NCBI GenBank assembly: GCA_014360755.1 | Contig: JACIWX010000007.1 | Coordinates: 62,001-126,000 of the forward strand | Length of the DNA stretch: 64,000 nt | Reading direction: 5' to 3' | Origin: Chloroflexota bacterium | GTDB taxonomy: Bacteria > Chloroflexota > Anaerolineae > UBA2200 | Shown here: piece after piece, positions 23,510-24,864 of the stretch | Layout: every line of letters begins with the position of its first letter | How positions within the stretch are numbered: the first letter of the stretch is position 1 | Notes under the pieces: generated by a model | The model's database searches: none | Told to the model about the DNA's origin: nothing | Seen by the model: only the letters and a program-made list of their open reading frames with translations | Program-made: the position numbers and the translations under genes

Positions 23510-23854
23510 TCAGCAGCACCGCTTGTTGTCACAGCAAGATGGTTGACTAGATTCGCAACAAGATGCTTGGGCGGGTGCGCAGCAAGCAGTTGCCCCCTGC
23601 CTCTGCTTTCTTCGGCCTTGCAAAGCGGCATAAATCATCGCGGCTGCACAGCCCACGCCACTATCTACCTTGATCGCTCCCGTTGGGCAGTTGAGTTGGC
23701 AGGCGCCACACTCCATGCAATCATCCGGCCTGAGCAGTATAGCGATGCCCCCATCTTGTCCGAACACGCCATGTGGGCAGACGTCGCTGCACAAACCACA
23801 TCCAATACACCATTGTGCATCGTATTCCAAAGTGTTCCACATGGATGCACGCAT
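23510..23854 (-). CDS. hgcB: HgcB-like 2[4Fe-4S] ferredoxin, mercury methylation accessory protein, Cys-rich C-terminal tail
   Basis: CIGCGLCSDVCPHG, CMECGACQLNCPTGAI, tail ACCAPAQASCCESSQPSCCDNKRCC; immediately downstream of hgcA. Confidence 0.92.
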   Translation of the reverse strand: MRASMWNTLEYDAQWCIGCGLCSDVCPHGVFGQDGGIAILLRPDDCMECGACQLNCPTGAIKVDSGVGCAAAMIYAALQGRRKQRQGATACCAPAQASCCESSQPSCCDNKRCC

Positions 23855-24864
23855 TACGCACCTCCTAGGTGTTGAAATAGCCTAACTCCCACCGTCAATA
23901 GCATGCCAATGCCAAACATCCACGCCATGATCGGGACATAGGTGAATATCTCGCGCTTGACCCCGCTTCGGGAAGTGATAGGGGTCGAGCCGGTGAAATT
24001 CAAAGAGAGAAAAGCGGTAACCGGCGGCAATGCCAACAAGCAGGCTAAAGCGCTGCTCAGCCGAAGCCACAGCGGCGCAGCGGCGCTGCGCTGAAACATC
24101 GCCAAGGCAAAGGGCAAGGCGACAATCCCTCCCAGGACAAACCCTTTGCTGCTAAAGTCGCGCGTCGGCAGCCAGGGCAAGAGAATAGGGAACAAAACTA
24201 CACCGGCTAGAATTGCCGCCACCGCGCTGGCCGCAGCCAGCCATCTGCTGATGGCATATAACAAAATCGCCACAAGCAGCGTTGGCACAAACATATGGAC
24301 TAGCTCCACGGGAATCAGCACCAAACGGTCAATCAGTGAAAAACGCACTCGGCGCATTTCCTCCGTCGCCTGGTGGCGCTTCAGATATTCTGGTAGGTCT
24401 GCCGCTCTCACAGGACCATACTCCACGTCGAACCCAGAACGCCTTTTCACCTCGTGCGCCGAGACCCCTGCAGCGCCCAACTGTGGCAAGATGAGATGAC
24501 GGTGAGACACTATGTCGGACAAGCGCACTGCCTCAATCCTCCGCACCAACTCGTCCGTGCCAAATGTGCCCTTGCCTGCAGCACACCACACGTTGATACC
24601 CTGCGTATCCAGCACTAAGATATAACCATCTATCCCGGCCAAAGCCGAGCGCAATGCATCGAAACTGAGCGTGTAGTTGGCCGTAACAAAAACCGGGGAA
24701 TGCGGCGTAGGATGGCCCAGGGCATACAGCCCTGGTTCCACCCGATGCCCACCACGGTTCACCCCACAGCGGGCTAAGAAGTGATCCCAATAGTTCACCC
24801 ACGTCATTTGGCTGGTCGCTTGCCGCACAGGGATTCCTTCCCCTAAGTCACGATTGCTCTGCAT
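23854..24864 (-). CDS. hgcA: HgcA corrinoid protein, mercury methyltransferase
   Basis: Cap-helix motif NVWCAAGKGTFGT (24571-24594 encodes NVWCAAGK), PVFVTANYTLSFDALR, PQLGAAGVSAH, C-terminal TM segments. Confidence 0.95.
   Translation of the reverse strand: MQSNRDLGEGIPVRQATSQMTWVNYWDHFLARCGVNRGGHRVEPGLYALGHPTPHSPVFVTANYTLSFDALRSALAGIDGYILVLDTQGINVWCAAGKGTFGTDELVRRIEAVRLSDIVSHRHLILPQLGAAGVSAHEVKRRSGFDVEYGPVRAADLPEYLKRHQATEEMRRVRFSLIDRLVLIPVELVHMFVPTLLVAILLYAISRWLAAASAVAAILAGVVLFPILLPWLPTRDFSSKGFVLGGIVALPFALAMFQRSAAAPLWLRLSSALACLLALPPVTAFLSLNFTGSTPITSRSGVKREIFTYVPIMAWMFGIGMLLTVGVRLFQHLGGA

What the first reader, a model, noticed from the sequence alone, without database searches (positions are those of the whole stretch)
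23510..24864. hgcA-hgcB mercury-methylation gene pair
Seen: the 23854-24864 ORF has NVWCAAGKGTFGT, PVFVTANYTLSFDALR, PQLGAAGVSAH and C-terminal TM helices. The next ORF has two CxxCxxCxxxC clusters including CMECGACQLNC, and the two are coupled (TAATG). Established: the N(V/I)WCA(A/G)GK cap helix with an adjacent HgcB ferredoxin is the accepted marker of microbial Hg methylation. Inference: the host can make methylmercury, in what looks like a Chloroflexota genome.
Basis: partly seen in the sequence, partly recalled or inferred. Interest (0 to 1): 0.88.

Follow-up and report, generated by a model that had tools for sequence, protein, structure and literature searches.

The report
Mercury-methylation gene pair hgcA-hgcB
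An uncultured Chloroflexota (Anaerolineae-type) bacterium carries a genuine, intact pair of the genes that turn inorganic mercury into toxic methylmercury; this gene pair is already known from that phylum, and the only unusual part is an HgcB tail stretched into a repeated array of double cysteines.

Summary
The 336-aa and 114-aa proteins encoded at 24864-23854 (-) and 23854-23510 (-) pass the curated NCBIfam cut-offs for HgcA (441.6 bits, cut-off 275) and HgcB (102.3, cut-off 99). The cap helix NVWCAAGK, the five-helix membrane domain, both CxxCxxCxxxCP clusters and the conserved Cys after them are all present, and the genes overlap as TAATG behind a perfect AGGAGGT. HgcA nests inside the Chloroflexota/methanogen HgcA clade, far from the genome's own CFeSP. 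The host is Anaerolineae-class Chloroflexota. Its genome has CODH/ACS and CFeSP, no true MerA, and no MerB was found. hgcAB in Chloroflexota has been published repeatedly, so this is a new member of a known kind; methylation by any Chloroflexota was still untested in the 2020 literature I read. Three additions: (1) the HgcB tail is an array of four CC pairs (four to six in close relatives), expanded separately in other Anaerolineae; (2) hgcAB sits in a swappable slot of a conserved cysteine/Fe-S/copper locus that holds an arsenite methyltransferase or nothing in sister genomes; (3) other Anaerolineae encode fusions of a SAM methyltransferase with an HgcA-like domain. Methylmercury production is inferred, not shown.

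The parts
23854..24864 (-). hgcA, 336 aa: corrinoid-binding domain followed by a five-helix membrane domain
   Evidence: NCBIfam NF040863 441.6 bits vs cut-off 275; Pfam CdhD PF03599; AlphaFold model matches HgcA of the HgcAB model 9a0b_A at E 1.5e-19 and CFeSP structures
24571..24594 (-). cap helix NVWCAAGK with the predicted Co-ligating Cys94
   Evidence: sequence; invariant in 35 homologues
23510..23854 (-). hgcB, 114 aa dicluster ferredoxin, start codon overlapping the hgcA stop (TAATG)
   Evidence: NCBIfam NF040864 102.3 bits vs cut-off 99; two CxxCxxCxxxCP motifs and C69
23513..23584 (-). HgcB C-terminal tail CCAPAQASCCESSQPSCCDNKRCC: four CC pairs, spacing 8, 8, 6
   Evidence: absent from HgcB of the other genera of the same family
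24848..25408 (-). hemerythrin HHE protein, overlaps the start of hgcA by 17 nt, probably cotranscribed
   Evidence: PF01814; retained in the same-genus genome G001 only
25500..26033 (-). ResA/TlpA-like thiol-disulfide protein with an in-frame TGA in WATW-U-PHC; probable selenoprotein
   Evidence: selB in the genome
23005..23478 (-). DsrE2-family sulfur-carrier-like protein downstream of hgcB
   Evidence: PF13686; syntenic in G001, G003, G004 and G002
20540..23068 (-). CopA-type heavy-metal P-type ATPase with two HMA domains
   Evidence: TIGR01525/TIGR01511; syntenic in the whole family
26354..31239 (-). conserved upstream block NifU, ferritin, NifS, CysE, CysK (Fe-S and cysteine supply)

Best explanation
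This is a bona fide hgcAB operon of an Anaerolineae-class Chloroflexota. HgcA would bind a corrinoid through Cys94 of the cap helix (Cys-on), be reduced to Co(I) by the two [4Fe-4S] clusters of HgcB, take a methyl cation from S-adenosylmethionine and pass the methyl group to Hg(II). HgcB's C69 and its tail cysteines would capture Hg(II) and/or release CH3Hg+. Family membership, residues, coupling, phylogeny and host are shown here. The catalytic steps are inferred from work on P. mercurii ND132 (PMC7305189, PMC11588087). In this genus the usual one or two tail cysteines have been multiplied into a tandem CC array, most likely a multi-site thiol relay or buffer for soft metals (inference). hgcAB occupies a variable slot inside a conserved cysteine, Fe-S and copper-export locus.
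For: Curated HMM scores over cut-off for both genes; invariant cap residues; two ferredoxin clusters plus C69; tree with window HgcA inside the HgcA clade, 100/93 support against the HgcAB-like group and a long branch to CFeSP; fold match to the HgcAB model entry and CFeSP; translational coupling; CODH/ACS and CFeSP elsewhere in the genome; same arrangement and tail type in a second genome of the genus, G001. Nearest homologues are named Chloroflexi/Anaerolineae.
Against: No biochemistry for any Chloroflexota HgcAB was found. HgcB passes its cut-off only narrowly (102.3 vs 99), although its core is 54-84% identical to other HgcBs. The ancestral function may not be mercury chemistry. HgcB model confidence is too low (pLDDT 46) to say anything about the tail. 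All genomes compared appear to be assemblies of uncultured organisms.
Confidence: 0.93

Rival explanations
1. It is an HgcA-like paralogue (HgcAB-like fusion family NF043039 or the CpaM-HgcA-like fusion) that does not act on mercury.
For: Such relatives are common in the same class: about 20 genomes score 150-199 bits on NF040863, and those read carry NVWCAAGG.
Against: The window protein scores 441.6 on NF040863 and only 219.8 on NF043039, below that cut-off of 285. It has a separate hgcB and falls outside the HgcAB-like group (100/93).
Confidence: 0.03
2. It is the ordinary CFeSP large subunit (CdhD/AcsC) of the Wood-Ljungdahl pathway.
For: Pfam assigns CdhD.
Against: Only the last 120 residues of CFeSP match. 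The genome has its own CFeSP genes on another contig, and CFeSP lacks the cap Cys and the membrane domain.
Confidence: 0.01
3. The gene pair is real, but its selected role is another thiophilic metal(loid), such as arsenic or antimony, or corrinoid/thiol chemistry, and methylmercury is a by-product.
For: In sister genome G002 the same slot holds an arsenite methyltransferase (NF008823, 342 bits, cut-off 263) instead of hgcAB. Neighbours are copper export, DsrE2, hemerythrin and a thiol oxidoreductase. PMC7305189 notes that hgcAB does not confer Hg resistance.
Against: One genome only; no substrate data. An association of hgcAB with arsenic genes is already noted in PMC7438021.
Confidence: 0.25

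Closest known systems
HgcA/HgcB of Pseudodesulfovibrio mercurii ND132 (PMC7305189, PMC11588087)
   Same: Corrinoid domain with Cys-containing cap helix, five-helix membrane domain, adjacent dicluster ferredoxin, extra Cys after the second cluster, C-terminal CC.
   Different: ND132 HgcB ends in one CC pair and the published HgcB description gives up to four extra C-terminal Cys; this one has eight in four CC pairs.
Chloroflexi HgcAB in PMC7438021 and PMC7573106
   Same: Same phylum, and grouping of Chloroflexota with Euryarchaeota HgcA, which reproduces.
   Different: The slot context and the tandem CC tail were not described in the passages I read.
HgcAB-like fusion protein NF043039 and CpaM NF043040
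   Same: Same HgcA-type corrinoid/membrane core with NVWCAAGG.
   Different: Window HgcA scores below the NF043039 cut-off, has a separate HgcB and no methyltransferase domain.

Membership tests
HgcA (NF040863) | Curated HMM cut-off 275 bits | tested here: met
   441.6 bits, residues 13-328
HgcA (NF040863) | N(V/I)WCA(A/G)GK cap helix with Cys | tested here: met
   NVWCAAGK, Cys94 invariant
HgcA (NF040863) | C-terminal five-helix membrane domain | tested here: met
   hydrophobic segments 175-330; five helices in model, pLDDT mostly 65-85
HgcA (NF040863) | Phylogenetic placement with HgcA, not CFeSP | tested here: met
HgcB (NF040864) | Curated HMM cut-off 99 bits | tested here: met
   102.3 bits, narrow
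HgcB (NF040864) | Two CxxCxxCxxxCP clusters, Cys73 equivalent, at least one C-terminal Cys | tested here: met
   C16-C26, C46-C56, C69, eight tail Cys
HgcAB pair | hgcA and hgcB adjacent and coupled | tested here: met
   TAATG overlap, AGGAGGT
HgcAB pair | Formation of methylmercury | not testable with these tools
   needs an assay
HgcAB-like fusion (NF043039) | Curated HMM cut-off 285 bits and fused ferredoxin | tested here: not met
   219.8 bits; ferredoxin is a separate ORF
CdhD/AcsC CFeSP large subunit | Full-length match and placement with CFeSP | tested here: not met
   77.8 bits vs 306 on PRK04165; only the C-terminal domain aligns

The most novel reading that the evidence does not exclude
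HgcB of this genus is a variant mercury-methylation ferredoxin whose C-terminal tail has become a tandem double-cysteine array working as a multi-site Hg(II)/CH3Hg+ relay or buffer. Such arrays have expanded separately in several Anaerolineae lineages: the same 8-residue CC-to-CC spacing with unrelated spacers in this genus and in G007, irregular spacing in G098.
Probability: 0.35. Interest if true: 0.5.

Novelty: new member of a known kind. Interest (0 to 1): 0.33.

Why it matters
It adds a well-supported potential methylmercury producer in a phylum whose methylation capacity had not been tested in the literature I read. The family gives a natural comparison of a single locus with hgcAB, with an arsenite methyltransferase, or empty, which bears on what hgcAB is for. 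The CC-array tails make the proposed thiol-relay role of the HgcB tail testable. [quoted passage not shown]

Tried and rejected
A viral-contig scan for HgcA found no relatives. The best MerA hit (401 bits, below the 454 cut-off) is a dihydrolipoamide dehydrogenase next to an E2 gene, not MerA. The MerB search was negative, but its control was silent, so absence is not proven. The HgcB AlphaFold model is too poor to use. A search with the tail alone found only the same HgcB clade; three candidates only, so it says little about other protein families. The CC-x6-CC DNA pattern is noisy genome-wide; only the hits inside hgcB were used. I suspected that the broken ResA-like ORF was a frameshift; the break is one in-frame TGA at the active-site position instead.

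Full report
CHECK OF THE OBSERVATION. Both ORFs exist at the stated coordinates on the - strand. NCBIfam assigns the 336-aa product to HgcA (NF040863, 441.6 bits, cut-off 275) and the 114-aa product to HgcB (NF040864, 102.3 bits, cut-off 99). The cap helix reads NVWCAAGK; Cys94 and its neighbours are invariant in an alignment of 35 relatives. HgcB has both CxxCxxCxxxCP clusters and the extra conserved Cys (C69). The junction reads CTAGGAGGTGCGTAATG, so hgcB starts inside the hgcA stop codon behind a perfect Shine-Dalgarno, and hgcA itself overlaps the end of a hemerythrin gene by 17 nt. A 35-sequence AlphaFold model (pLDDT 74) shows the alternating strand-helix corrinoid domain and five long helices. 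Its best PDB match is the HgcAB model entry 9a0b (E 1.5e-19), followed by CFeSP chains.

WHAT IT IS NOT. The Pfam name is CdhD, but the genome has its own CFeSP and acetyl-CoA synthase genes on another contig. The tree puts the CFeSP on a very long branch away from all HgcAs, and puts the HgcAB-like relatives outside a 100/93-supported HgcA group that contains the window protein. The genome's closest MerA match is a lipoamide dehydrogenase, and no MerB was found, although that search had no positive control.

HOST. Named class members (Anaerolineales bacteria UBA4826 and E26_bin7, Chloroflexi AS06rmzACSIP_190) lie on contigs whose lengths equal those of 'same class' genomes. The host is therefore Chloroflexota, Anaerolineae-type. 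The nearest HgcA homologues carry Chloroflexi/Anaerolineae names. In the class, 22 of 397 sampled genomes exceed the HgcA cut-off. The window HgcA sits in a large group of Chloroflexota and methanogen HgcAs (100/100), matching the published Chloroflexi-Euryarchaeota grouping (PMC7438021).

THE SLOT. In the host's family the order CysK, NifU-like, CysE, NifS, ferritin, NifU, TusA, [slot], DsrE2, CopA is conserved, with some members missing in individual genomes. The slot holds ResA-like, hemerythrin, hgcA and hgcB in G000 and G001, and hgcAB in G004 and G005. It is empty in G003, where TusA, DsrE2 and CopA follow one another directly. In G002 it holds an iron permease, a CcdA-like protein, the ResA-like gene and an arsenite methyltransferase (NF008823, 342 bits, cut-off 263). 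Window HgcA is 61-63% identical to those of G004 and G005 but 72-77% to some other families' HgcAs, while flanking CopA and NifS are 77-82% identical between the window and those same two genomes. This suggests replacement or re-acquisition in the same slot, but the tree does not resolve it: the deep Chloroflexota branches are open.

THE TAIL. HgcB ends in CCAPAQASCCESSQPSCCDNKRCC. Five close relatives have four to six such pairs, mostly spaced 8 residues apart, with the copy number varying. G001 carries the same type with different DNA, which speaks against an assembly artefact. G004 and G005, in other genera of the family, have one pair. Among the 120 best HgcB hits, four or more pairs occur only in this clade. 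In other lineages the array recurs: G007 (CCENDASP units, 8-residue spacing, 18 tail Cys) and G098 (irregular spacing, 15 tail Cys). The HgcB description in PMC7305189 gives up to four extra C-terminal cysteines, and loss of both ND132 tail Cys cut activity by 95%. A thiol relay or buffer role for the array is my inference.

MECHANISM. By analogy with purified ND132 HgcAB (PMC11588087), SAM methylates Co(I) of HgcA, HgcB supplies electrons, and the methyl group passes to Hg(II); tail and C69 thiols are proposed to handle Hg(II) and CH3Hg+ (PMC7305189). None of these steps was tested here.

A RELATED CURIOSITY. The weaker HgcA hits in the class that I read in full are 541-614 aa proteins: an N-terminal class I SAM methyltransferase (NF043040 CpaM, 271-290 bits in four tested, cut-off 180; Pfam Methyltransf_25 also in a fifth, L068) fused to an HgcA-like corrinoid and membrane region with NVWCAAGG. 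No dicluster ferredoxin lies in the 0.5-1.5 kb read on either side. I found no paper describing this fusion in the held library.

VERDICT. A real, intact hgcAB of a known kind in a phylum already reported to carry it. It is ordinary in identity, with a genus-level HgcB tail variant and an informative locus comparison.

Noticed in passing
L068, L070, L071, L072, L074 (related Anaerolineae genomes): 541-614 aa fusions of a SAM methyltransferase (CpaM-type NF043040) with an HgcA-like corrinoid/membrane domain carrying NVWCAAGG and no ferredoxin nearby; suggestive for SAM as methyl donor in this superfamily.
   Followed up: partly
25500-26033 (-): ResA/TlpA-like protein with in-frame TGA at the first active-site Cys (WATW-U-PHC), a hairpin just downstream (z -1.55) and selB in the genome; probable selenoprotein, with the same split in G001 and G002.
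   Followed up: partly
L149:4404-10587 (G002): Arsenite methyltransferase, CcdA-like and EfeU-like genes in the slot that holds hgcAB in sister genomes.
   Followed up: partly
L094 and L099 (G007, G098), hgcB 3' end: Separately expanded HgcB tails with 18 and 15 cysteines, most of them in CC pairs.
   Followed up: partly
9331-12912 (-): Glycyl radical enzyme (TIGR01774, 912 bits) with its activase; scores below all substrate-specific cut-offs, so substrate unknown.
   Followed up: no
71-754 (-): Methyltransferase-cognate corrinoid protein of the MtgC/MtbC type, below the specific cut-offs.
   Followed up: no
31657-42498 (-): 3613-aa repetitive protein that looks like a secreted surface protein made of many repeat domains.
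   Followed up: no
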